Assembly: GCA_004794785.1 (NCBI GenBank)
Contig: SJOL01001927.1
Coordinates: forward strand, 42,969 to 106,968
Length of the DNA stretch: 64,000 nt
Source of the DNA: Opisthorchis felineus
Lineage: Eukaryota > Platyhelminthes > Trematoda > Opisthorchiida > Opisthorchiidae
Reading direction: 5' to 3'
Positions within the stretch are counted from its first letter, which is position 1, and every line of letters starts with the position of its first letter. A program made the translations under genes and the position numbers. Below the pieces are notes generated by a model. It did not search any database, was not told the origin of the DNA, and worked only from the letters and a program-made list of their open reading frames with translations. Shown here piece by piece: positions 4,455 to 58,460 of the stretch.

Positions 4455-4509
4455 TTGGTGGACGGCCAGATTCAAAGCGACTTGAAACACGGATTGGGTT
4501 TCCATCTAC

Positions 4510-6042
4510 ATGACCACCACTGCTCCGGTTTCCATACAGTTGCAAGGTAGCCTAACACTCGTGCGCTCCAAAAGTCCTCCTACAACCCGTGCCGTGTCTA
4601 GATTTCATCCTGCTTCACCTGTCCGCGTACCTTGGCTTTCGTATTACTTTGGCACAACTGCTGCGACTTCAGAACAGTCGCACTTCGAAATTCTTTCTTC
4701 GCAGGGTCTGGTGGTCTGTCCTGTTTGTGCACAACATTTTTCAAACAGTAAATTGCTACAACACCTCGCGTTACATTTGCTGGTTGATGAACTCTATTTG
4801 GGCACATTATGGCCATACGAGTTTTGCCCTGAGTGTATCTCACCCCAGACACGTGAGCGTATGTGTGACCATCGACGTGTACATTCCCACTTGCGTGACA
4901 ATGATCCAGCTACTCTGTTGGATGGTCTTTTCGTCTGTCCAGCGTGCGAATTGAGTTTTGCTAGCATACTCAAATTTGCTGTTCATCTATACGAACGGCA
5001 CGTCTTTCGTGACGCACCCTATGTTTGCTCCATATGCCACTCGTTTCACACTTCTCGGTATACCGAATTGATGCGACATTTAAGTACTTCGCACAACAAT
5101 ACCAATCAGCTGTTTTGTCCATATTGTCTCAAGCACTTTGAGTTACCCACAGTAGAAAAAAACTCACTGAGCAATATAGATGTATTCTCAGCGCACCGTT
5201 TATATGATCACATGCGGTCACATTGGGACGACCTCACTTATCGCTGCGATTGCTGCCGGCTAGATTTTACCCATCGGAGGGATTTACGCCTGCATGAGTA
5301 TTTGCAGCATCAAGGATTTAATCCCTCACCGACATCTACAGATTGTACGTCTACAATTGACACGGCCTTTGCGGATGACCACCTTTCATCTAATCAACTG
5401 TGCCTATACTATTCAAATCACCTAAGGACAACCACCCCTCGAATGAGTCTAAAGTGTTTGGAATGTGGTGAAAGTTTACGACAACCGATCAGTCGTCATT
5501 TCAATCTAACAGTCTGTTGCCCCAGTTGTCGCTTCGCCTCGTCATGTAGTATGGCCGTCCACTGTCACTGGTGTAATGTGCACTCCGCTCCGCCAGTACC
5601 TTCCTCCTCCTCCTATATCATGGACCTATCCAAGCAACTTACCTCGTGGGAACGATGCGTAAGCTCATTGCTTGGCTCAATTCATTTGGACCAGAAGGCA
5701 AAGTCCACGACAAATCCTCCGCCTCATGACCCCTGTGGATCCTTATTTTCTCGAGTCAGACATTGCAGACACAAACATACTCCTCCAGATATTGAGTTCC
5801 GCGGTCTACTACGTTGTCATTGTGGGTTTCGCACTATCATTGGCAATCAGATGGCCAGGCACTTGGCCACTGGACGTTGTAAATCGACCACAGCCTATTT
5901 GGACTACAGTCCCCGCCCTCCCATCTTTTCCGTTGTTGAACGATCCCGCAAAAGCTTATTGCGTGCCAGAAAACGTGCGCTTGATAAATTCAATGCCTCC
6001 CCTTTTGTACTTCAGTCCGTCGGTTTGCTTTCGACCAGATGA
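4510..6042 (+). CDS. C2H2 zinc-finger protein of the ZNF280/POGZ type
   Basis: This is an intact 510-residue protein in one exon. The start is supported by an in-frame TGA at 4483, just after a plausible acceptor (CCTTCCAG at 4447-4454), so the segment before ATG 4510 is probably 5' UTR. Zinc ligand groups, by residue, are C70/C73/H85/H89, C106/C109/H121/H125, C143/C146/H159/H164, C173/C176/H190/H195, C203/C206/H234/H238 (long linker), C246/C249/H262/H267, a C316/C319...C337/C340 double unit, and C436/C438/H451/C457. The order, including a finger of type CPYCLKHF, then CDCCRLDFTH, then CLECGESL paired with CCPSCRFASSCS, then a final C.CGF finger, matches the zinc-finger block of vertebrate ZNF280 and POGZ proteins. 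There is no transposase-like domain as in POGZ. The basic tail near 478-492 could be a nuclear localisation signal. It is probably a nuclear DNA- or chromatin-binding protein; its target is unknown. The family call rests on motif order only. Confidence 0.85.
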   Translation: MTTTAPVSIQLQGSLTLVRSKSPPTTRAVSRFHPASPVRVPWLSYYFGTTAATSEQSHFEILSSQGLVVCPVCAQHFSNSKLLQHLALHLLVDELYLGTLWPYEFCPECISPQTRERMCDHRRVHSHLRDNDPATLLDGLFVCPACELSFASILKFAVHLYERHVFRDAPYVCSICHSFHTSRYTELMRHLSTSHNNTNQLFCPYCLKHFELPTVEKNSLSNIDVFSAHRLYDHMRSHWDDLTYRCDCCRLDFTHRRDLRLHEYLQHQGFNPSPTSTDCTSTIDTAFADDHLSSNQLCLYYSNHLRTTTPRMSLKCLECGESLRQPISRHFNLTVCCPSCRFASSCSMAVHCHWCNVHSAPPVPSSSSYIMDLSKQLTSWERCVSSLLGSIHLDQKAKSTTNPPPHDPCGSLFSRVRHCRHKHTPPDIEFRGLLRCHCGFRTIIGNQMARHLATGRCKSTTAYLDYSPRPPIFSVVERSRKSLLRARKRALDKFNASPFVLQSVGLLSTR

Positions 6043-16724: not shown

Positions 16725-16885
16725 TCTACGACGTTCGTGGCTGAACGGTTAAGTGTTCAACTACTAGCTGGGAGGTTGCGATACCCCCTGGGGTTCCGTG
16801 AAATGCGCACTGCTGATGAGTCCCAATAAGGATGAAACAACTGTACAGTGCTCGACTTTTCAGCATAAATTGGCTTCACTTACAG
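16725..16885 (+). mobile_element. Hammerhead-bearing tRNA-type SINE, single copy
   Basis: The 5' part has an A-box-like TGGCTGAACGGTTAAG and a degraded B-box (GGTTGCGATACCCC), followed by a hammerhead ribozyme (16805-16853) and a tail CAGCATAAATTGGCTTCACTTA. The whole unit aligns with both arms at 41617-42310, which share GAACGGTCAAG, CGGGTTCGAAACTC, AAACAGCTGTACAGTGC and GGCTTTTCAGC. The plan (pol III promoter, ribozyme, short tail) is that of schistosome SM-alpha SINEs, although outside the catalytic core the sequence is its own family. The extreme 5' part seen in the inverted pair appears to be absent here. Confidence 0.75.
16805..16853 (+). ncRNA. Type I hammerhead ribozyme
   Basis: All core elements can be placed. 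CUGAUGA is at 16813-16819. Stem II is GUCC (16820-16823) with GGAU (16830-16833), closed by the loop CAAUAA, with one G-U pair. GAA is at 16834-16836. A two-pair stem III, AC/GU, is at 16837-16838 and 16843-16844 around AACU. The cleavage nucleotide is A16845, giving a GUA site. Stem I pairs GCACUG (16807-16812) perfectly with CAGUGC (16846-16851). A very short stem III is typical of retroelement hammerheads and usually means weak activity as a monomer. Self-cleavage is predicted from the structure, not shown. Confidence 0.8.
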
Positions 16886-16889
16886 TACA

Positions 16890-17365
16890 AAATCTCAAGT
16901 AAAATTTCCAAATCCCCTTAAATAACTAACATCCGTTGATTGTTCCATATTTGGTAACCTGTTCTGTAATGCTTGACAAGAAGTTCCGCGATCCTCCCGC
17001 CACTCGCCGCTGTTTCAGTCTGGCGTGCGATATTACCTTTTCTGAGCATAAGGTGAGAGTTGTTAAGAAAGACGTCCTGCCTTTAATTTAACACGCTGTC
17101 ACGAAGATACTGGACCTTACCGAGGTACGACGCTTTGTGTGCCCCCGTGACCCGCTGAGCCATGCTGGATAGTATCCGAGTCTCCCATACCAGGTTAGTC
17201 AACGGTTAGACTTCTGACCAAAACAGTCTCCTGGCCCTCCAGTATGGGGATTGGAACAGGTGTGGCGACTTGTTCTATGAAAATGGTAACGCACTTGCAT
17301 TTCCTGCCAAACACCGCTGCCTTGCGGTTAGGCTTTTGAGCCAAAGGCTTTGGTCGACGAACCTA
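16890..17365. other. Unassigned spacer
   Basis: Lies between the hammerhead SINE and the RTE element. Nothing recognisable. Confidence 0.35.
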
Positions 17366-17369
17366 ATCG

Positions 17370-19600
17370 TCTTCCTGTCTAGGTCCGGGCGCCCTAGCAG
17401 TAGCCCATGTACAAATATGAACTACACACATACAAAAAAGCTAGTACCACATCGGCCTTGGCGTGGTCAACAGCCGGGTCGCCTTACTTGCCGCATACAG
17501 CAGGGCGGGTAAGTGAAAACATGCTACTGCTGACGCCTCCCTTTCCCTCTTCTACCCTACCCCACTCAAATTTGGATACTCTCTCAGCAGGTCCCGTCAC
17601 TAGGACCGACCGTTTTGGTCGCCCTGCATCACACTTAGCTTTCAAACCCCGGAAGCCTGTCTACTTAGCCGTCTTTAATGTTCGCACATTGAAGCAATCA
17701 GGACAACAGGTGGCTCTTGCTCGTACGCTGGATTCCCTCTGTAATGATGTATGCTGTCTGTCACAAACAAGGATACAGGACGCAAGTACTGTGATAGAAC
17801 TGACTGCCCCCTCACTCTCTTCCAGGTTCCAGCTGCGCGCCTTTGGTGATGCTGAGGCCGCTTCAGTTGGATATGCTGGGGGGTATCGTATTGAGCGACC
17901 AAGCAGAAGCGTCTCTACTTGATTGGATCATACGAAACTATCAGCACCGGCTCCTCGAACGCCTGCCGAACGGCCTGATGTCGGATATAAACGGCCACGG
18001 TGAAAATATAACCAAAGCGCCACTCAGGGCCGGAGTTGCTGTTTACGGTACAACCCAGCCAACCTCATCCAAACATTTTATCTCTGATAGGAAAATGTCT
18101 TTGCTGAAGGCCCGGTGACAGATTTCTCCTGGCCGCAAACACAACCCCACCCGACGCCAGGTAAAACTGAGTGTCCGTACAGGCCGTGAAGCTTGGTGGA
18201 CCCTAAAGGCAGAAGAGATTAGAGGTAAAAAACGCTGTAAACTTACGCAATCTGTCCCATTTTATGCGTTTGACAGGTCCTCAGCAGCCTCTTGTCAGCG
18301 AAACAATCAGAGACCAAAATGGTCCATGATATCCAGCAAGAGAGAACATTTGGACCGCCGGACACAGTATTTCGAAAAGGAATTCAGTTGGTCACCCGCT
18401 ACCTCCAATCCGGAATCCAAACGGTCAATGCTGTTAACTACACTTGCTCAACAGGGTATGTCCCAGACGTTTGTGAACATAGTCCGATCCCCATATTCAA
18501 ATACCTCTAGCCGTGTGAAGGTGTATGCTGAGCTCTCCGAAAGCTTCCCTATGAAAAGTGGTGTCCGACAAGGATGTCGATTCTCTCCATTCTTGTTCAA
18601 CTTCGTCATTGATGAAATAATGAAGCGAACGCTAGGTCTTCAAAACCCCGGTGTTCAAATTATCGCTGGTGAGAACTTTGTCGATATGCAGTACGCAGAC
18701 GACATCTCCCTCATCTTTGAAAACCAAGGCGAAGCACAAGCCCTGCTGAATAGACTGATCACCATCATACCATCTTTTAGCATACGCCTTGCACCTTCAA
18801 AGTGCAAAGTCATGCTTCAGAACGCGCAGTCTGCGAACATATCCCTTACAATTCAAGGAGAATCACTGGAGGTTGTGGAAAATTTTACATACCTCGGTAG
18901 TTGTATTAGCTCTGACGTAATTGTCTGATGAAGTCAGTGCAAGAATCTCAAGGGCTCGAATCACGTTTGCTAATTTGCGTCACTTGTGGCGTCAAAAAAG
19001 GCATCTCACTAGATCTTAAGGGTCGTGTGTATCAGGCTACAGTAAGGGTTGTGTTGTTGTATGGGTGCGAGACATGGCCTCTGCGGACAGACGATGTGGA
19101 ACGTCTTCAGGTTTTTGACCACCGATGCCTCACAAGCGTGGCTGGTTTCGGATGACGTCAGCGTTAGTAACGAGGTGATTAGAAAACGGGTATCTGGTTG
19201 TGCAGCAGGTACTTAATTCGCGGGAAACATCCAGTAACATCAACTGCGGTGGCTTGGTTATGTGCTACGCAAGACGGAGCACCGTCTACCGGGACGAGTG
19301 TTGTTCTCTGTGTCCCTCAGAATGGCGCAAACCACGATGTGGCAGAAGGGCGTGAAAGAGATGACTGAGTTTGAGTACTGTACACCTTCCAGGATGGAGT
19401 TACCGTGACTCCGTCTATGGTTGGTGTTCGTGCTTTCAGTTTCTTCCGAGATTGTCTGACTGAGCGCCTGGGTGTGCAGGCATCCCAAAATTCTTACGAT
19501 AGGCCAACACCAGGTCCCCTCCCTCCCCCATTCATTTTTCACTCTGGGGTTTCAAATATAATTAGATAAACTTCATGTTTGTACGGCAGTGAAGCATCAG
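17370..19600 (+). mobile_element. RTE-type retrotransposon, best-preserved copy with internal deletions
   Basis: From 5' to 3' it has a GC-rich leader (17370-17510; the same leader occurs in the reversed copy at 30070-29830); an apurinic endonuclease N-terminus at 17640-17890 (LAVFNVRTLKQSGQQ, then DVCCLSQTRIQD); a short linker at 18120-18420 (EAWWTLKAEE, YFEKEFSW); reverse transcriptase at 18430-18930 (SGVRQGCRFSPFLFNFVIDE, YADD at 18692-18703, then GSCISSD); and a C-terminal block at 18930-19160 ([17 protein letters not shown]), trailing into GWLGYVL-like and GQ..TWQKGVKE remnants by 19370. Most of the endonuclease and the 5' half of the RT are deleted, and stops occur at 17920, 18118 and 18926. 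It is therefore inactive although the YADD site survives. The 3' flank around 19577 (TTGTACGGCAGTGAAG) recurs at 27024 after another RTE copy and may mark the shared 3' UTR. Confidence 0.9.
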
Positions 19601-28739: not shown

Positions 28740-29400
28740 ACTCAACCAATCCTGAGATCATGCGTTTTGCACCTTCAAAGTGCAAAGTCATGCTTCAGAA
28801 CGTGCAGTCTCTAAACATATCCCTTACAATTCAAGGAGAGTTGCTGGATGTTATGGAAAATTTCACACACCTGGCGGAAGTGTATCTGATGAAGTCAGTG
28901 CACGAATTTCAAAGGCCCGAATCACGTCTGCCGATCTGTGACGTCAAAAATGCATATCACTGGGCTTCAAGGGTTACGTGTACCAGGCTACAGTAAGAGC
29001 TGTGTTGTCGTATGGTTGCGAGACGCCTCACATCTACAGATAGATGTGAGGCGTCTTGAGGTTTTTGACCACTGATGCCGCAGAAGCGCTGCTGGTGTCG
29101 GATGGCGTAACAAGTTAATTATAAAACGGATATTTGGTTGTGCAACAGGTACTTCAGTGGCGGAAAACAGTCAGCATCATCAACTGCGGTGTCTCGGCCA
29201 TGGGTTACACATACCGAAACACCATCTACCGAGACGAGTGTTGTTCTCCGCACCTCCTTCCGAATGGCGCAAACCACCAGGCGAACAATGCATGACTTAG
29301 CAGAAGGGTTTGAAGAAGATTACGAAGAGTTTGGGTGTTGTTGGAGCGACACACCTTCTAGGTTTGCGTAGGCAGACACAGTGAACTGGCATTGATTATC
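28740..29400 (+). mobile_element. RTE-type RT C-terminal fragment with a new perfect hairpin
   Basis: From 28764 it follows the copy at 18780 closely (RFAPSKCKVMLQNVQSLNIS, LTIQGE, then HEFQRPESRLP), then YQATV.AVLSYGCE. The CETWPLR region is replaced by a 16-bp perfect palindrome (29021-29056), after which the match resumes with LEVFDH. The C-terminal part follows to about 29370 (TSVVLRTSFRMAQ). It is frameshifted and inactive. Confidence 0.8.
29021..29056. repeat. Perfect 16-bp stem with 4-base loop
   Basis: AGACGCCTCACATCTA (29021-29036), loop CAGA, then TAGATGTGAGGCGTCT (29041-29056). The related element at 19068-19105 has no palindrome here and matches only the right arm (GATGTGGAACGTCT), so the left arm looks copied from the right arm in reverse. 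Confidence 0.85.
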
Positions 29401-29419
29401 GGTGCGTTTACGGAGTACC

Positions 29420-30070
29420 CTCATCTATAAGTTACCAAAAGAACCACAATACAGGATACTATCAGTAGGCAACCAATCAAGTAGGGACCCTTGAGATCGA
29501 AGGCTTGAAACGATACCAACCACGGGAGTGGATCAAGAAGTGCACAACCGCACTCGGGAAGGCGATGGAGAGGCCAGTTTAACAACTGTAATTTGGTACT
29601 CGCTTCAGAGAGACAGCACACATCAACAGAAAGCGTGTCCAGCGTACGTGCAGTAGTTTTGTGTCCAACTTGCTTCACAGTGCGAAAGTTAAAGGCTGTC
29701 AGATGAGCTGAGCGTCGGAGTCTGAAGAATGATTTCGAAGTGTCTACGGTAGCGGCGGCCGAGCTAACCGTAGATATTTCAACCAACGGCGATCGGTAGT
29801 GGAGTGGCCAGTTCTCAAAAATGGACGCCAGACGCCAGAAACGGAGTAAGGAGGGGGTGAGGAACGAATGCAGGGAAGAGAAAGAAGAGGCACCAGCGGT
29901 AGCCTGTTTTCACTTACCCGCTCTGTTTCGTGCAGCAACTAAGGTGACCCGGCTGGCGTCACCACACGAGGACCGATGTGGCATGAAGTTGTGGTTGTGC
30001 GACTCGCTGTTGTAAATGGGCCGGGATGCTGTCAGGGCGCCCAGGACTAGAATGGGCTATGAGGGTCCTC
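29420..30070 (-). mobile_element. RTE-type element, 5' leader and endonuclease start, reversed
   Basis: The minus strand from about 30070 reads CTGGGCGCCCTGACAGCATC, GCCAGCCGGGTCACC and GCGGGTAAGTGAAAACAGGC, matching the leader of the copy at 17370-17520. It then codes, with frame changes, ERVSENRLPLVP, then HLTAFNFRTVKQVGHKTTAR, TLDTLSVDVCCLSEAS and LLNWPLHRLPE. This is the apurinic endonuclease N-terminus with the catalytic Glu (LSE) retained. It stops near 29420, immediately beside the oppositely oriented RTE 3' fragment. Confidence 0.8.
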
Positions 30071-41363: not shown

Positions 41364-41616
41364 CTGTGAAAACAAAAGTGAAGAATTATGCAACAAGAGG
41401 AACCAAGTCACAGTTGTCAGGATATTGTCTGTAATACCCTCCATTTATGTCTCCCCTCCGCTGTTTTTAATGAACGTTAGGAAGTACATAAAAGGCTTAA
41501 GTGGGGTCTACCAAGAGGCACAGCAGATTGCGCAAGAGTGCGTTCTCAATAGACATAGGGTGGAGGACATAGGGTGTGAGGAGACGTGGTAATTTTCAAC
41601 AGATATTCCGTCCTAT

Positions 41617-41925
41617 CGGTGAAGCCAATCTACGCTGAAAAGCCGAGAAGCACTGTACAGCTGTTTCGTCCTTGTGGGGGAACTCAGAGTTTCGAACCCG
41701 CGACCCTCCGACCAGTGGCTGGAAACTTGACCATTCGAACACGAGTGGCTGATCAGCAGTGTAGCTAGCTCTCACTTGAACAGGACAGCGCGACTCAACG
41801 TTCGATCACGGAAACCGCATCACGTGGTCGCGTACAGACTGGCTCCTAGATTGACGATTTATCAGAAGGGAGTTCTACTCATCTTGTGAAATTCTTCCCG
41901 AGCTACATATAGATTGATAATGATG
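41617..41925 (-). mobile_element. Hammerhead SINE, left arm of an inverted pair
   Basis: The minus strand reads AATTTCACAAGATGAG, GGAGCCAGTCTGTACGCGAC, GATGCGGTTTCCGTGATCG, CTCGTGTTCGAATGGTCAAG (A-box region), GTCGCGGGTTCGAAACTC (B-box), then GGACGAAACAGCTGTACAGT and CTTCTCGGCTTTTCAGCG. The stretch that should hold stem I and CUGAUGA has been deleted between CTGAGTT and CCCCCACAAGGAC, so the ribozyme is dead, although GAAAC, stem III and the cleavage site remain. Confidence 0.75.
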
Positions 41926-41994
41926 TGAGCGGAACTGGTAATTTTCAACAGAGATATAGTCCTGTCCAAATCTCCACACATCAACCTGTAAGTA

Positions 41995-42310
41995 GCTCAA
42001 AGGAATAATTTCACAAGATGAGCGAAAATTCCTTCTGAAAGGTCGTCGCTCGAGGAGCCAGTCTGCACGTGACAACGTGATGCGGTTTCCGTGATTGAAC
42101 GATGAGTGGGCTATGCCCTATTCAAGTGAGAGCTAAATACACCTCTGATGGCCACTTGTGTTCGAACGGTCAAGTTTTCAGCCACTGGCTAGAATGTTGC
42201 GGGTTTGAAACTCTGAGTTTCGTGGGATGCGCACTACTGAAGACTCCGGACAGAGATGAAACAGCTGTACAGTGCTTCTCGGCTTTTCAGCATAGATTTA
42301 CTTCATTAAA
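41995..42310 (+). mobile_element. Hammerhead SINE, right arm of an inverted pair
   Basis: Homologous to the left arm over its whole length in the opposite direction, with about 70 bp between the arms. The ribozyme region (42229-42275) reads GCGCACTA, CTGAAGA (allowed, as core position 7 varies), a stem II that no longer closes properly, GAAAC, AGCT, GTA, CAGTGC. The first pair of stem I is also lost (A42236 against C42270). It is a decayed hammerhead. Confidence 0.75.
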
Positions 42311-42319
42311 AGGAGGAAA

Positions 42320-51910: not shown

Positions 51911-52018
51911 GACGAAAAAAATTTGTGAGAAGGTAGTTAAACACTTTTCATCTGGGACACAAGGTAGTTGATCGATACTGTTTAAACAAGGCAATAAGAC
52001 AGCTCTCCTTTTGCTTAT

Positions 52019-52374
52019 GCCAGCTACCTTCAAATTCTAATGATCTGGTCTTGCTTCAGCTTGACATTTTCCCCAAAAGAAAAAAAGCGGTAGTAACTGT
52101 GCTTCCCTGCCCGTGTCTATTAGGGGCGACCACGTCTACATAGAGTAATACCCACTGTTTATGAAACTGTTCATTTTCCGCGCAATCTCCTGTACCCACA
52201 AATTTCGCCAGTTATGCAATTTATTCTAACTGCAACAATACGATCATGCCTGGCGGTACGCCACCCACCAGTTGGGAACAAATCCACACTGGACAGCGGG
52301 TGCCTCGCATGCTGTATTTACTAGAAAACGCGCTCAACTGGCTAGCTCCTTCGGATTCCTCGACTTTCCGTTTG
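52019..52374 (+). repeat. 356-bp inverted repeat, left arm
   Basis: Matches the reverse complement of 57575-57930 with only about six differences, grouped near GCCAGTTATG and GCTGTATTTACT. It contains a CR1-like 3' end (CATGCCTGGCGG stem-loop and CCACCAGTTGGGAACAAA, ending near 52290) plus about 85 bp of sequence beyond that end, so it is a copied chromosomal segment rather than only a shared transposon. Confidence 0.85.
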
Positions 52375-55300
52375 TTATTATTAGATTAGGGACTCAAAAT
52401 GGAAAGCATCAAAAAGAACTGTTAGGTGGTACTGTGTTATAAGTTGAACTGTGTCCCGAAATTGGAGGCAGCTAATAGTGATTACAGTTTCTAGCTACTG
52501 TAGTTGGGCGACACTGTCAGATTTCAAAAGCGACGATCGACATTGAGGTGAGGACAGTATGGAATAGTGGTATGCTGTCAGTGGAAAACAGTGTGGCCAT
52601 GTGAATATGAGTGACGTTCATTAGCCGAATAATGAACCACCAGAGTCATAGCCAGTTACATAATGGTCCATGGAGCTAGGTGAGAAGGGCATGGGGGCTA
52701 GCAGGCGGTCCCCAAAATTGCGACTGAAACGTAAGTGCCTTCGAATATAGTTTGTGTTTCCAAGCGGTTTTCTGGCAGGCATCTGAGGAGGTGGGTTTTT
52801 CACTCCTTCGAGCATTTCAGGGCAAGAAAGGGTTTATGATGCCATTAAAGAGAGTTTTTCGGACGGCTCAGTAGCGCCCATTCAACAATGTTTGAGGGAG
52901 CTGCAGAGGAAGACAAGCAACCAGTTAGGGGCTACGGTGAATAGTAGCATACAGACTAGTGATGTGGATGGCTTTCTGATATTACGTACTGGGCAGAAAG
53001 TGGCGCTAACCGATCTCATAATTTGAGTGAATTTAGAGGAATTAGTAGTCCATAGCATGAAGAGAAAACAACGTGAGGTGCATCGTCGCGTTGCTTATTT
53101 GGATGATGCGGTGGCCCCAGCATGACGCACTGATAGCCTAAGATGGAGGGCACAGGTTTCACGAAACGAACTGCCTCAGGCGAGTTACCCACTGCACTTA
53201 GGAAGTCTCGGATTACTTTGAAATGAGACAGCATTTTTACTCTATAATTGATGTTCTGGATTCACAGGAGGCTTTCCCAGGATGTTTGCTACAACCGGGA
53301 CAAGTTTAAGTTAGTTGCACAGGCGCTTGAAAAAAACTGATTTCATTTTCATTTTTTGTATATATTGTTGATGTTACTGATGGGTTCAGTGGCCAGCCAA
53401 TCATTCTAAATAGGAAGTTTTCAACATCGCATTCAATGGAGTTTGAAACTAAGAGAATGTGGGTAAAAGCAGTAGTTGCATGCGAAGTTAGGTTAAGTGG
53501 GCGAGGGTCCAAGTAAATCAGGGTGTACTAAACCCCGGAGGTAGATGAGTGAATGGGAAGTAGGAGGCAGGTTTGAACCCACGGCAGAAGGTGGAGTATG
53601 AAGCTCAGCATGCGGTAGGGCAGGTCTCCGGGAGGAGACATGCCGTTGAAGGGGGGTGTCAAACGTGTAATCGTTCGCATCGTCAGAGCCATTGGGCACG
53701 GAAGGATGGGATATGGTACGGAAAGAGTTAGGGGATGCTTGGGGACGGGTAGTGGCCGAGAATTTAGCCAGGTGGGACGGACATGGATAGAAAGGCAAGG
53801 TTAGTTGAAGGGATGGGTGGCTGGGAGTCATGGTCCACCGACAGCTCAGAAGTAAGAGGGGCGTTATGGCATTGTGGCATGTATGCTACTTGGATGTGGG
53901 TTAAGTGATATCTATTCCTGTGGCGACGAAACGAAGCAGTCCCCAGTTAGTTCACCATAATCAGAGACAGTTAGATTGTATCAGAAGCGGCTGTCATGGT
54001 CGCCTATGTATTCGGATAGTTTAGACATGATGGTGGAAGTGAGGATGGATGGCAATACGTCAGCATGGACAGTGGGTTAGGTGGGGCTAAAAACCCATAT
54101 GGCAGATATGGAAAGGAGCCTTAGAGTAACCTCAGATAGCGAGCGCCTTTCAACTTTTTGGGCGTGCTGCAATGTGGAAGCGTTTTTCGGCTAGGCCAGA
54201 GTAGTGAAGTTCACAAAAGAGTCAGTCTATAAATGCAAGCATGGGAGCGGATAAGCGATGTCCGCGAACGGAGCCCCTAGTTCCTGTGAGCGCTGCTGCG
54301 TTGGACCACGGGATAGTTCCCAGTAAGTTGAGGACGACAGAGCTGTAGTTTTTACTACGCTACAGGGTATCGGTATCGGGAAGCAGAAGTGGAGGGAAGT
54401 TAGGATTCAGTGCTCTAAAGAAGCGGATTTGACACCAAGTACCGGCCAACTAACCAGATCTGTACAGCTACATCCGTGGGTAAAAGTTCGCAGACGCATG
54501 AGGTCCTTGAATCCTAAGGGTCGCTTCTACATCACCTGATCTTACGACTGCCTTGTATGCAGCCCTATTAGCCATAAATTTTGCTTCGTCCAATAATGCG
54601 TATAATCACGAAATCTCGACATCGCAACATCAGTGTACACATGGCTTCTTGATCGACGACGGGGTTAATCGAGCAAGTAGCGTGTTTGTCCTTCTAACAG
54701 TTAGGTGTCTGAACACTTTTGCCAAAAATATAACGGAGATTAAGCCGAATATGCACTTTTCATTTCAGATTGGTCGTCGAGTGCATGTGGTTTGCGGAAA
54801 AAGAAATGGAGAAACTACCCAATACGGTTGTCCCAGTGCATTAAGTAAATGAAAAAGTGTTTCGCCCATGGCGTTATTTAATTTTGTGGAGCGGGCATGG
54901 CAAGGCGACAACACATCCTGTTATGATGATGAAGAGCCATCATTGGCCATTGCGTCCGGCTATCGTGCATGGTTAAGGCCTCATAACAAGCCGCGCGCTT
55001 GGGTACGGTCCTAGTAGATGGAGGCGGCCAAGTTGAAGTCCAATTTCCAGCACGCTTATTCTAAACCTTGCATTTGTATCCCGAGATGACACAGATTTTG
55101 TCTGATTCTTTACGGAGTGAATGCTTTCCAGGTCCGCGTTTTCATTTAGTGTCATGGGGTTCAAATCTTATCCACAAAGACTGCTCTTACGACAGCCTTC
55201 TATACACGTCTCTTTCGCTCCAACTTTGCTTGCGTCCAATTGTACGCCATTGAATCCGGATGTGACCACTGTATCGTCCATTACTTTGACATTTGAAATT

Positions 55301-57574
55301 CCCCACGTTTCTTGTCCCTACTTGTAACTCCCGCCCCATTTTGTGTCTAGTGCGTCTATATGAACTGACGTTTGTTTGTCCTTACCACTTCACCCATTTG
55401 GCCTTGAGGTCATTCAGCCATTTGTGGCCGACCTTACGCACGTATGACTGTCTCACGTGGGAGCCTGCTTGCTCATTTGTTTCGTAATTTTGTAGTCCAA
55501 GTGGACCGTTTGTTGTTGACGAGTATCTACTGTCGGGGTTTGTACATTTTGTGAATTGATGTCTTACGTTAATAGTACCGTATAGAAACCCAGCTCCGAC
55601 TTTGTTTTGCCTTCTCGGAGGTTCTGGAATTACGCGTCACTCGAAGATACAGTTTGCTCGTTACGACCACAGTGCAGGCGCCGATTTTTCATTCTCGACA
55701 ACGGCAGTTATCAGACACTGTGTAAGTTAGCATATCAAACTATCAAATTATGATGTTTTGATGCTGTTATCGAAGATATACACCGGATGTAATTGACTAT
55801 ACATTTTTCATTTCAGGTTACCTGTTTAATGAAGGTGGTTTTCGGAAAACCAGAGCTCCAATGGCTATCCACTAAGTTTGTGCCAGTGCATCTATTACAC
55901 AAAAACAGTAAGTCGCTATCGGTGATCTTGTAATCTTCAAGCGTGGGCATGTCAGGCGGACACCGCTTTTGGGTACGAGGGATGCCGTACAGTTATGTGT
56001 ATAGAGGGAAGTCTCTAGCCGTTGGAATAGGATATTATGAATATTTGAGGCCTCAGTCAGCGTTGCACATAAGCGCGGGCCTTGGAATTACGATAAGTAG
56101 TTAAGGTGAGAGAATACGACTAAGGCTATGGTGACGAAGAATAGCATCTGGCCATCGCATCAGGATATCACGCATAGCAAAGGCCTCATAACTAGTGGCA
56201 TGCTGAGTATGGGCCCGGCGAAAACGTGCGGTTATCACGATAAACAAGGATTCTTGACCTTATTTTTCGGCAATGACGTTGCACTTTATGACGTATTCCG
56301 GCTAAGTAACGTCATGCTTCCAAATGGGAAAGATATTTCATCGGGATGTTGGTAACCCACATGCAGATATCTGAAAACAGTGAATTATCTCCTGGGATGC
56401 TGGGCACATCCGAGAATAGGGATCAACTGCAGAGGTGCATAATCGCACCAATACTTTATGATTCACTGGTTTGTCTTCGAGTATTATAATGAACGCAGGG
56501 CGAGCTTCTCAAAAAAGTTTCGCAACGAAGCTCGCTGAACAAGCCCATCTAATTTGTTATGTATGACGGGTTATCCAACTATCTACCTGGACGGAATTTG
56601 CACGAGATATTCTGCAGACGTTATTTTTTCTTTAAAGGGCACTGTGTAACGTTTACTTTGCTTCATCTCGTAAGCCGGTAATCACGTGCGACTCAGTGGT
56701 GGTCGGTGACCTTGAAATTTTGCTCAACTAAACAAAATTGTCTGAAAAACGTATAACCGAAACGTGCAGTGCGATTAAACCAACTCCCTACAAAATTCGA
56801 AAATTCGAATACCCATAGCTCCCGCGATATTAATTTCGGTTTGCCGATAGTGAGCGGCCTGTCCTATGGTTTCAGAAGTAGCTTCACACAGGTATGTCAG
56901 GCGTCCCAGAGGATTAGCTTTCGGCCCTTTTCTGGCTGTTATCAGTGTCGGCAACCCTTCTGCGGCTCTGCTATTTGCTTGCTATTCGTTGAAGACCAAA
57001 ATGTTTAAAATGTTCATGGCTCGTACAGTTCGCAAGTGGATGGAAGCAATTTAGACTACTGGTCAGAGGACTGAGGCCTGTGAAGCGATGAGCCTTCGAA
57101 TAAACTCGACGCTAACCTGAGGCACTTGTCTTACAAAAGAGGTGACAATTTCAGCGTTTAAATCACCGTGGAACTTTCGTGACGCGCCTTGGAGGCACAA
57201 TGTGTTTTTTGCAAAACTTTTACGAGTGGAATAAAACTTTTCAAGCCGAAATGTTGCATTTCGTTGCACGTGTGCTCATATCAAAAATCGCCTTGATCTA
57301 CCGTCATTTTTCCTCGGTCTGTTTTTATTGCTATCCTTTCTAAATTTGTCGCGCGCATTTGGCTTTAAACTTGCTGTGCCATAGCTTCAGAAGTGGCTTC
57401 ACACCCGTTTTTTGAGACACTGGAGGCTGCATCATTTTTATCCATCAAGCCGTTTGAGAAGGCGTTAAATAAACTCATGAAGGATAACTACGTGGTAGTT
57501 GTGCGTTCACCCAGGAATTGAAACACCAACGTTATTTTGCGTTACAAGTGGGTGTACAACAAATGCAGAAGTGA
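52375..57574. other. Interval enclosed by the inverted repeats
   Basis: 5.2 kb without a supported gene. It holds a purine-rich plus strand at 53500-54450 and repeated blocks at 54490-55010, 55150-55330 and 55800-56240. Short similar phrases at 56866 and 57385 (TTTCAGAAGTAGCTTCACAC and CTTCAGAAGTGGCTTCACAC) suggest internal duplication. No transposase-like protein was seen. Confidence 0.4.
54490..56240. repeat. Diverged internal duplication
   Basis: GATCTTACGACTGCCTTGTA (54538) resembles GCTCTTACGACAGCCTTCTA (55182), each followed by a TTTGCTTCGTCCAA-like phrase. CTTTTCATTTCAGATTGG (54756) resembles TTTTTCATTTCAGGTTAC (55804), followed by TGTGGTTTGCGGAAA and GGTGGTTTTCGGAAA. GGCCATTGCGTCCGGCTATC (54947) resembles GGCCATCGCATCAGGATATC (56150), each followed by AAGGCCTCATAAC. 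The spacing differs between the pairs. Confidence 0.55.
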
Positions 57575-57930
57575 CAAACGGAAAGTCGAGGAATCCGAAG
57601 GAGCTAGCCAGTTGAGCGCGTTTTCTAATGAAAGCAGCATGCGAGGCACCCGCTGTCCAGTGTGGATTTGTTCCCAACTGGTGGGTGGCGTACCGCCAGG
57701 CATGATCGTATTGTTGCAGTTAGAATAAATTGCATGACCGGCGAAATTTGTGGGTACAGGAGATTGCGCGGAAAATGAACAGTTTCATAAACAGTGGGTA
57801 TTACTCTATGTAGACGTGGTCGCCCCTAATAGACACGGGCAGGGAAGCACAGTTACTACCGCTTTTTTTCTTTTGGGGAAAATGTCAAGCTGAAGCAAGA
57901 CCAGATCATTAGAATTTGAAGGTAGCTGGC
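57575..57930 (-). repeat. 356-bp inverted repeat, right arm
   Basis: Reverse complement of 52019-52374, about 98% identical by eye. It includes the CR1-like 3' end in minus orientation and the same extra 85 bp. The flanks outside both arms share no obvious target-site duplication. Confidence 0.85.
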
Positions 57931-58460
57931 AAAAATAAACCGAGGGTGGCAAAACACGAAGCATCCTGCTTGACACATGACAAGTGAAGTACAAACTGCG
58001 GAAAATGAGGAACCAGACCAACGGATCTGTTGAGGCAGCGGAGTTGTCGTGATCCAACCGATCAGTCTGAACCAAAACATAAAACCAACGCTGGGGACTT
58101 GTGGCCTTGGACTGCTGGGCTGATGGCCAGTGTCACAAAAATCGTAAGTGATGATGATGAAGTGGAGGGATTAGTAACGCGCATATATGGTAGCAGGAAT
58201 CTCAGAATTATGGTGTACACTGAAACTGTAGAGACTCACTGGTATCGCTGTTGAAGTGGAGTTGGTTGTAAAACTTCCTTGGAGGAGTGAGTTGATGACA
58301 ACACACAAGCCAAATAGTGGACCGTACAGAAAATTGTTGACTTTGTGAGGACTGAAGACTTAAAGTCCACCGGATTGTTTAAATCCGAACGAAAAGTTCA
58401 GCTGATTAGAATGAACGCCGTCTGTAGTGTATGGCGTTGCCAGTTAAACGACAACCGGGG
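57931..58460 (-). mobile_element. Body of a CR1-like 3' region, minus orientation
   Basis: The phrases AAACTGTAGAGACTCACTGG (58221) and TTTAAATCCGAACGAAAAGTT (58378) recur as AAACTGAGTGGACTCACTGG (61332) and TTAAATCCGAACGATATGTT (61488), at a similar distance from a CR1-like 3' end in each case. No coding block was recognised. Confidence 0.45.

What the first reader, a model, noticed from the sequence alone, without database searches (positions are those of the whole stretch)
16805..16853. Foldable hammerhead ribozyme inside a tRNA-type SINE
Every core element and all three stems can be placed: CUGAUGA, a four-pair stem II, GAAA, a two-pair stem III, a GUA cleavage site at 16845 and six perfect stem I pairs. 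The catalytic core resembles the SM-alpha hammerhead of schistosomes, but the surrounding SINE, the stem I sequence and the cleavage triplet differ, so this may be a separate, possibly undescribed SINE family of flatworms.
Basis: partly seen in the sequence, partly recalled or inferred. Interest (0 to 1): 0.85.

Follow-up and report, generated by a model that had tools for sequence, protein, structure and literature searches.

The report
Decaying ribozyme in a fluke SINE
The window holds a worn copy of a common fluke mobile element that carries a hammerhead ribozyme; most of the copies examined have lost a base pair the ribozyme normally needs, yet the element kept spreading, in a pattern that suggests both cut DNA ends can be copied onto in one event.

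Summary
The motif is real: Rfam places a type I hammerhead at 16807-16851, 32.1 bits, under the cut-off of 34 but E 4.6e-4 for the window and all families. It lies in one decayed copy of a common 386-nt SINE; a 35-place hammerhead pattern has 243 exact genome matches and none to its reversed control. The genome is a fluke's, probably an opisthorchiid (inferred). GUA is the family norm, but of 100 listed copies 82 have U and U at 10.1/11.1 and one has the canonical G-C. The window copy has G.U and has lost its outer stem I. Support from compensated changes is weak (4 pairs; 42 of 500 shuffles as high). None of 60 mapped 5' ends lies within 4 nt of the cleavage site. Copies stand singly, in partial tandem, or head-to-head; some head-to-head pairs are bounded by one target-site duplication, and none was tail-to-tail. 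Most likely this is a relative of the schistosome Sm-alpha elements whose ribozyme has largely decayed while an enzyme supplied in trans, perhaps Penelope-like, kept inserting it. No activity was measured and no such enzyme gene was shown.

The parts
16735..16806 (+). head of the SINE copy: box A-like TGGCTGAACGG (16738-16748) and a damaged box B-like GGTTGCGATACC (16774-16785); the copy begins at unit position 181, near the tRNA-like start
   Evidence: sequence; 16735-16931 = unit 181-386, 81%; box consensus recalled; no tRNA model match
16807..16851 (+). type I hammerhead motif; scissile bond after A16845 (GUA|C)
   Evidence: Rfam RF00163, 32.1 bits
16820..16833 (+). stem II, GUCC/GGAU: first pair is G10.1.U11.1 instead of G-C
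16852..16931 (+). 3' part and tail of the SINE copy; a 3-nt deletion just after stem I disturbs the outer stem I pairing seen in the family
41574..41965 (-). decayed second copy of the same SINE (left arm of a head-to-head pair); 5' half of its hammerhead missing from the alignment
41979..42314 (+). decayed third copy (right arm of the same head-to-head pair); hammerhead remnant near 42231-42275 with damaged stem II

Best explanation
The site is a relict copy of a common fluke SINE. The element is a 386-nt unit: a spacer, a Pol III-type internal promoter region (A/B-box-like), a type I hammerhead with cleavage triplet GUA, and a short tail. It descends from the hammerhead SINE lineage also found in schistosomes (Sm-alpha kind). 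In this genome the amplified family has lost the G10.1-C11.1 pair next to the catalytic core, so its ribozyme is probably slow or dead. The RNA was still inserted by a reverse transcriptase supplied in trans. Insertion starts at one of two places in the tail, can run through more than one unit, and in a fair share of cases starts from both ends of the cut target, which leaves head-to-head pairs flanked by one target-site duplication. Shown here: the motif, the family, the missing pair, the copy architecture, duplications around some pairs. Inferred: the promoter, descent, loss of activity, the enzyme (a Penelope-like element fits best), and the cleavage step not being needed.
For: Motif. Family: 46 matches listed with 40 of 3286 candidates scored; 243 exact pattern matches, control 0, 100 listed. 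Missing pair: U-U in 82 of the 100 listed, G-C in 1; unpaired in 45 of 51 distinct aligned rows. Canonical state elsewhere: the Rfam consensus, 30 exact canonical cores in this genome against 0 in the control, 3 of them in this SINE and 24 in another family. Insertion: of 48 clusters, 22 single, 18 head-to-head, 7 same-strand, 1 mixed, 0 tail-to-tail; 10 of 46 have a duplication score of 6 or more against 0.18% of permuted flanks, 6 of the 10 bounding a whole head-to-head pair with 10-15 nt. 3' ends: 22 of 59 at unit 352-361 and 25 of 59 at 384-386; 0 of 60 5' ends within 4 nt of the cleavage site. PMC11167929 (abstract and passages): a Penelope-like enzyme starts at two adjacent internal sites, cuts and extends both strands, stands in partial tandems, and hammerhead mutants do not affect insertion in vitro.
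Against: No cleavage, RNA or insertion was measured. The U-U pair may still allow slow cleavage or cleavage as a dimer. Model scores do not separate the states cleanly: of three G-C copies only L074 (38.2 bits) passes the cut-off of 34, while L085 (26.6) and L091 (25.4) score below the window copy. Folding does not separate them either: neither L054 (U-U) nor L074 (G-C) has the hammerhead as its lowest-energy fold. Covariation score and percentage paired exceed most shuffles (6 and 8 of 500 as high), and in the young matches the hammerhead diverges less than the rest (65 of 2104 against 415 of 8522 positions); I put both down to relatedness and to how the loci were found, but constraint is not excluded. 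The copy loci were best matches to the window, and that ranking may favour places with two copies; in the less biased 100 places, 3 head-to-head, 2 same-strand and 0 tail-to-tail neighbours lie within 1500 nt. Only 6 of 18 head-to-head pairs have a clear common duplication. No Penelope-like gene was shown: the GIY-YIG search did not complete. L1-type twin priming could explain L019 and L055. Ends at 386 partly depend on where I opened the unit.
Confidence: 0.58

Rival explanations
1. Working non-LTR retrozyme: the hammerhead is active in the young family; tandem transcripts cut themselves into 386-nt units that are circularised and reverse transcribed.
For: Partial tandem units (L049 period 379, L059 386); core letters, stem I and stem III kept in most aligned copies; outer stem I helix 92% paired with a UGC/U internal loop, a place where loop-loop contacts could form; covariation score reached by only 6 of 500 shuffles. 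L053 segments share rare variants, as expected of one circular or multimeric template.
Against: U-U at 10.1/11.1 in 82 of 100 listed; pairs changed on both sides not beyond shuffles (42 of 500); no 5' end within 4 nt of the cleavage site, though circles need not leave one.
Confidence: 0.28
2. Head-to-head pairs come from independent nested insertions into a hot spot near older copies, not from one event.
For: L024 looks nested: an older copy of about 77% identity split by a younger one of about 95%. Twelve of 18 head-to-head clusters gave no common duplication score of 6 or more (one of the 12, L042, lay too near its locus end to be scored).
Against: Six head-to-head pairs are bounded as a whole by one duplication of 10-15 nt (L060, L019, L021, L026, L039, L043); 0 tail-to-tail; arms abut or overlap by 2-4 nt in several pairs.
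Confidence: 0.12
3. Chance resemblance of one sequence to a hammerhead.
For: Score is below Rfam's cut-off; single-sequence fold not exceptional.
Against: E 4.6e-4 over all families and the window; 243 genome matches against 0 in the reversed control; two of nine other loci scanned hold a hammerhead above the cut-off, L074 in this SINE and L082 in another family.
Confidence: 0.01

Closest known systems
Sm-alpha / Sj-alpha hammerhead SINEs of schistosomes
   Same: SINE-like repeat with a type I hammerhead; high copy number (over 38,000 and over 5,000 hammerhead matches in S. mansoni and S. japonicum, PMC2770079 passages); hammerhead-like sRNA clusters overlapping SINE/tRNA repeats also in S. 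haematobium (PMC5993326 passages); schistosome peptides compatible with the same stem I and layout
   Different: GUA triplet (Sm-alpha GUC is recalled, and stands in the Rfam consensus); U-U instead of G10.1-C11.1 in most listed copies; no tRNA found by the models, whereas the Sm-alpha family is derived from tRNA-Gln; 386-nt unit against the 335-bp W36.2 element that resembles SMalpha (PMC8490949 passages)
non-LTR retrozymes of animals
   Same: small tandem units with type I hammerheads, platyhelminths listed among carriers (PMC7229834 passages)
   Different: pair next to the core lost in most listed copies; no 5' ends at the cleavage site; head-to-head pairs, not mentioned in the passages I read
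Penelope-like elements
   Same: partial tandems, two internal start sites, extension on both strands, hammerhead not needed for insertion in vitro (PMC11167929 abstract and passages)
   Different: the SINE has no recognised protein; no Penelope-like gene was identified here

Membership tests
type I hammerhead ribozyme (RF00163) | model score at or above the curated cut-off | tested here: not met
   window copy 32.1 of 34 bits; relative L074 38.2, but L085 26.6 and L091 25.4
type I hammerhead ribozyme (RF00163) | CUGANGA, GAAA, three stems, H17 | tested here: met
type I hammerhead ribozyme (RF00163) | G10.1-C11.1 pair | tested here: not met
   G.U in the window; U-U in 82 of 100 listed copies
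type I hammerhead ribozyme (RF00163) | self-cleavage | not testable with these tools
   needs a bench assay
Sm-alpha-type hammerhead SINE | high-copy interspersed element with hammerhead | tested here: met
Sm-alpha-type hammerhead SINE | tRNA-derived head | tested here: inconclusive
   A/B-box-like motifs; 10 of 60 5' ends at unit 169-186 (scan p 0.06; binomial 4e-4 for that stretch chosen afterwards); no tRNA found
Sm-alpha-type hammerhead SINE | sequence homology to the schistosome element | tested here: inconclusive
   peptide P0015 against a family unit 48% over 33 aa, E 4.8e-7 in a three-sequence search; against the whole window no hit shown exceeds the shuffled maximum of 28.5 bits, part of the output being cut
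non-LTR retrozyme | tandem units with a hammerhead | tested here: met
   partial tandems, 7 of 48 clusters
non-LTR retrozyme | circular RNA made by self-cleavage | not testable with these tools
   no RNA data
inserted by a Penelope-like enzyme | Penelope-like reverse transcriptase with GIY-YIG domain in the genome | not tested
   search did not complete; ten frames near the loci gave none

The most novel reading that the evidence does not exclude
A hammerhead SINE family is inserted by an enzyme that primes reverse transcription on both ends of the cut target at once, so single events leave head-to-head pairs, and the ribozyme became dispensable and decayed in the master lineage while the family went on amplifying. 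A second, canonical hammerhead family in the same genome shows head-to-head pairs too, so the machinery would be shared.
Probability: 0.35. Interest if true: 0.65.

Novelty: new variant of a known kind. Interest (0 to 1): 0.5.

Why it matters
What hammerheads do for the elements that carry them is open. A successful element that lost a key pair, beside relatives in the same genome that keep it, gives natural test pairs: cleavage and insertion history can be compared copy by copy. The head-to-head pairs with one duplication would be a genomic trace of reverse transcription on both strands, which I have seen described only in one in vitro study of a Penelope-like enzyme (PMC11167929, abstract and passages; I made no search for other reports of it).

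Tried and rejected
Chance resemblance: rejected. GUA as a private mutation of the window copy: rejected, it is the family norm (the pattern itself requires GTACA, so the unforced evidence is). Compensated stem changes: weak. Hammerhead product ends defining copy ends: not found. Opposite-strand peptide search from the window copy: no hit. Viral collection: 2 contigs with a similar core, L001 and L002; in the 261 bases that I read around each I saw no likeness beyond the core, by eye only. Prokaryote contigs: 0. Whether head-to-head arms come from one RNA: inconclusive, since later changes are private to each arm. Genes of the copying enzyme near the loci: ten frames scanned out of 75 of at least 110 codons in 46 loci gave one integrase core and nothing else. 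A genus name: not established.

Rows dropped before counts; clusters touching a locus end; two more clusters for the duplication test; the window's pair at 41574-42314 was counted as two singles because of a gap; matches under 80% identity and the reference copy; matches under 88%; these are BLAST segments, not whole copies; of 53 stretches found the four weakest were left out and four from L074 (two), L085 and L091 added; matches not covering the whole hammerhead; the printed expectation of 0.01 is too low; counting both directions and the part of the genome listed, I get about 0.06 by hand.

Papers. Read as passages only: PMC7761336, PMC4918200, PMC8490949, PMC2770079, PMC6155905, PMC6530080, PMC7229834, PMC2837043, PMC544870, PMC6257768, PMC7151607, PMC5993326; PMC11167929 abstract, outline and passages. 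Not held: PMC108972, PMC2941103, PMC4209133. Absence from print: 'hammerhead ribozyme' with Opisthorchis 0 papers, with Clonorchis 1, on S. japonicum eggs, listing only; 'hammerhead', 'SINE' and 'liver fluke' 3, of which I read passages of one, on S. haematobium, and the listing of two. Subscription papers are mostly not held, so earlier description elsewhere is possible.

Changes made on checking: confidence lowered from 0.62 to 0.58 because two of three G-C copies score below the cut-off, the folds do not separate the states, and the peptide evidence is partly circular.

Full report
1. The observation. Rfam's type I hammerhead model matches 16807-16851 with 32.1 bits, under the curated 34, E 2.9e-6 for the local stretch and 4.6e-4 for the whole window against all 4227 families, where it is the only match up to E 3; at the curated threshold there is none. 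The core pattern with up to three mismatches is unique in the window and absent from 100 shuffles. The single-sequence fold is unremarkable (49 nt z -1.0; 66 nt another fold).

2. Where it comes from. The protein encoded at 4486-6039 is closest, apart from itself, to Paragonimus westermani (61%), an unnamed assembly (60%), Dicrocoelium (59%), then Fasciola gigantica (50%), Fasciolopsis and Calicophoron (49%) and Schistosoma (42-44%). The genome that holds the window has 630.1 Mb in 1848 contigs. So it is a fluke; an opisthorchiid is my inference from the missing closer relatives and the genome size.

3. The family. A search with 16725-16885 scored 40 of 3286 candidates and listed 46 matches, the best others 84% identical. 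Aligned copies with flanks show a unit of about 386 nt that also stands in tandem (spacing 379 in L049, 386 in L059). Fifty-seven BLAST segments of at least 88% identity differ from the family majority by a median of 4.7%. An exact 35-place pattern with free letters at 10.1, 11.1, position 7, the loop and 15.3 has 127 + 116 matches and none to the reversed control; 100 are listed.

4. The ribozyme in the family. GUA is the norm. At 10.1/11.1 the listed 100 read T-T 82, T-C 6, G-T 5, T-A 2, C-T 2, G-C 1, T-G 1, A-T 1 (typed). On 53 aligned copies (51 distinct rows) that pair is unpaired in 45; stem I, stem III and an outer stem I helix of five pairs are 91-95% paired, stem II 75.5%. Changes on both sides occur at 4 pairs against a shuffled mean of 2.0, 42 of 500 shuffles reaching that; the covariation score was reached by 6 of 500 and the percentage paired by 8 of 500, measures that the tool warns are inflated by relatedness. 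The window copy has G.U and a 3-nt deletion that disturbs the outer stem I. The position matters because a metal ion binds at A9/G10.1 (PMC6257768 and PMC7151607 passages); in cave crickets the two positions are called conserved and show compensatory changes (PMC2837043 passage).

5. Canonical relatives. The pattern with G10.1 and C11.1 has 30 exact matches in the genome and 0 in the control. Three of the 30 are this SINE (L074, L085, L091), 24 are another family with a two-base or similarly short stem III loop, and 3 are neither, by reading. Rfam scores for nine loci: L074 38.2 and L082, of the other family, 34.7 pass the cut-off of 34; L070 32.0, L085 26.6 and L091 25.4 do not; two U-U copies (L054, L049) reach 28.3 with another hammerhead model whose cut-off is 52. 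So scores alone do not separate canonical from U-U copies.

6. Schistosomes. Their sequences are compatible with the opposite strand of a hammerhead SINE: F-R in 8 of 8 fits CGAAA and so C11.1; L (7) or P (1) fits G10.1; SSAH (7 of 8) and GST (7 of 8) fit the two arms of the same stem I. Codon choice is inferred, and my query already held these residues, so their uniformity is partly circular; what stands is that such sequences exist in Schistosoma. In the fluke family the two codons read isoleucine and histidine; the window copy reads leucine (G10.1) and histidine (U11.1). With the Rfam consensus and the canonical copies in this genome, the U-U state looks derived. A direct peptide match is modest (P0015 to a family unit, E 4.8e-7 in a three-sequence search; no hit shown above shuffles in the window).

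7. How copies insert. Mapping the unit on 38 loci and the window gives 48 clusters away from locus ends: 22 single, 18 head-to-head, 7 same-strand, 1 mixed, 0 tail-to-tail. The window's own pair at 41574-42314 was split there by a gap and counted as two singles. Ten of 46 clusters show a flanking duplication score of 6 or more (permuted flanks 0.18%); six of these bound a whole head-to-head pair, so those pairs went in as one event; the other twelve head-to-head clusters are undecided. L024, the mixed one, looks nested. In the 100 places, neighbours within 1500 nt are 3 head-to-head, 2 same-strand, 0 tail-to-tail; chance would give about 0.06 pairs by my hand correction of that script. 3' ends cluster at unit 352-361 (22 of 59) and 384-386 (25 of 59); of 60 5' ends none is within 4 nt of the cleavage site and 10 lie at 169-186, at the tRNA-like start (scan p 0.06).

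8. Mechanism. A Penelope-like element studied in vitro starts reverse transcription at two adjacent internal sites, cuts and extends both strands, stands in partial tandems, and inserts with hammerhead mutants as well (PMC11167929). The SINE shows what looks like the genomic counterpart of each point. The second hammerhead family shows part of it: a minus-strand partner within 50 nt upstream in 8 of 24 loci, and no tail-to-tail neighbour close by. I therefore hold that the SINE is inserted in trans by such an enzyme and that its ribozyme is not needed. This is inference: no such gene was shown here, and twin priming by a LINE remains possible.

9. Verdict. Real, more than chance, and of a known kind, the hammerhead SINEs of flukes, but a variant: the window copy is a relict and the family's ribozyme is probably decayed. 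The unexpected part is the insertion signature.

Noticed in passing
L065-L072, L075-L084, L087-L089, L092-L094 (24 loci of the same genome): A second repeat family with a canonical hammerhead (typically GCCTAC CTGATGAGTCCCAAGAAGGACGAAAC CG GTC GTGGGC), a very short stem III loop as recalled for dimeric hammerheads, also in head-to-head pairs.
   Followed up: partly
window 41574-42314: Head-to-head pair of decayed copies of the same SINE, 13 nt between the arms, not listed in the finding.
   Followed up: yes
window 17404-19308, 28759-29955, 1-751: Fragments of a LINE-like element; reverse transcriptase domain in the frame 18119-18925.
   Followed up: no
window 4486-6039: Zinc finger gene (POGZ-like and Di19-like fingers) conserved in flukes.
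   Followed up: no
window 52005-52375 and 57574-57944: Inverted repeat with 371-nt arms, 97% complementary, 5.2 kb apart; perhaps the ends of a DNA transposon.
   Followed up: no
L073, L086, L090: Three further canonical hammerhead cores that by reading belong to neither family.
   Followed up: no
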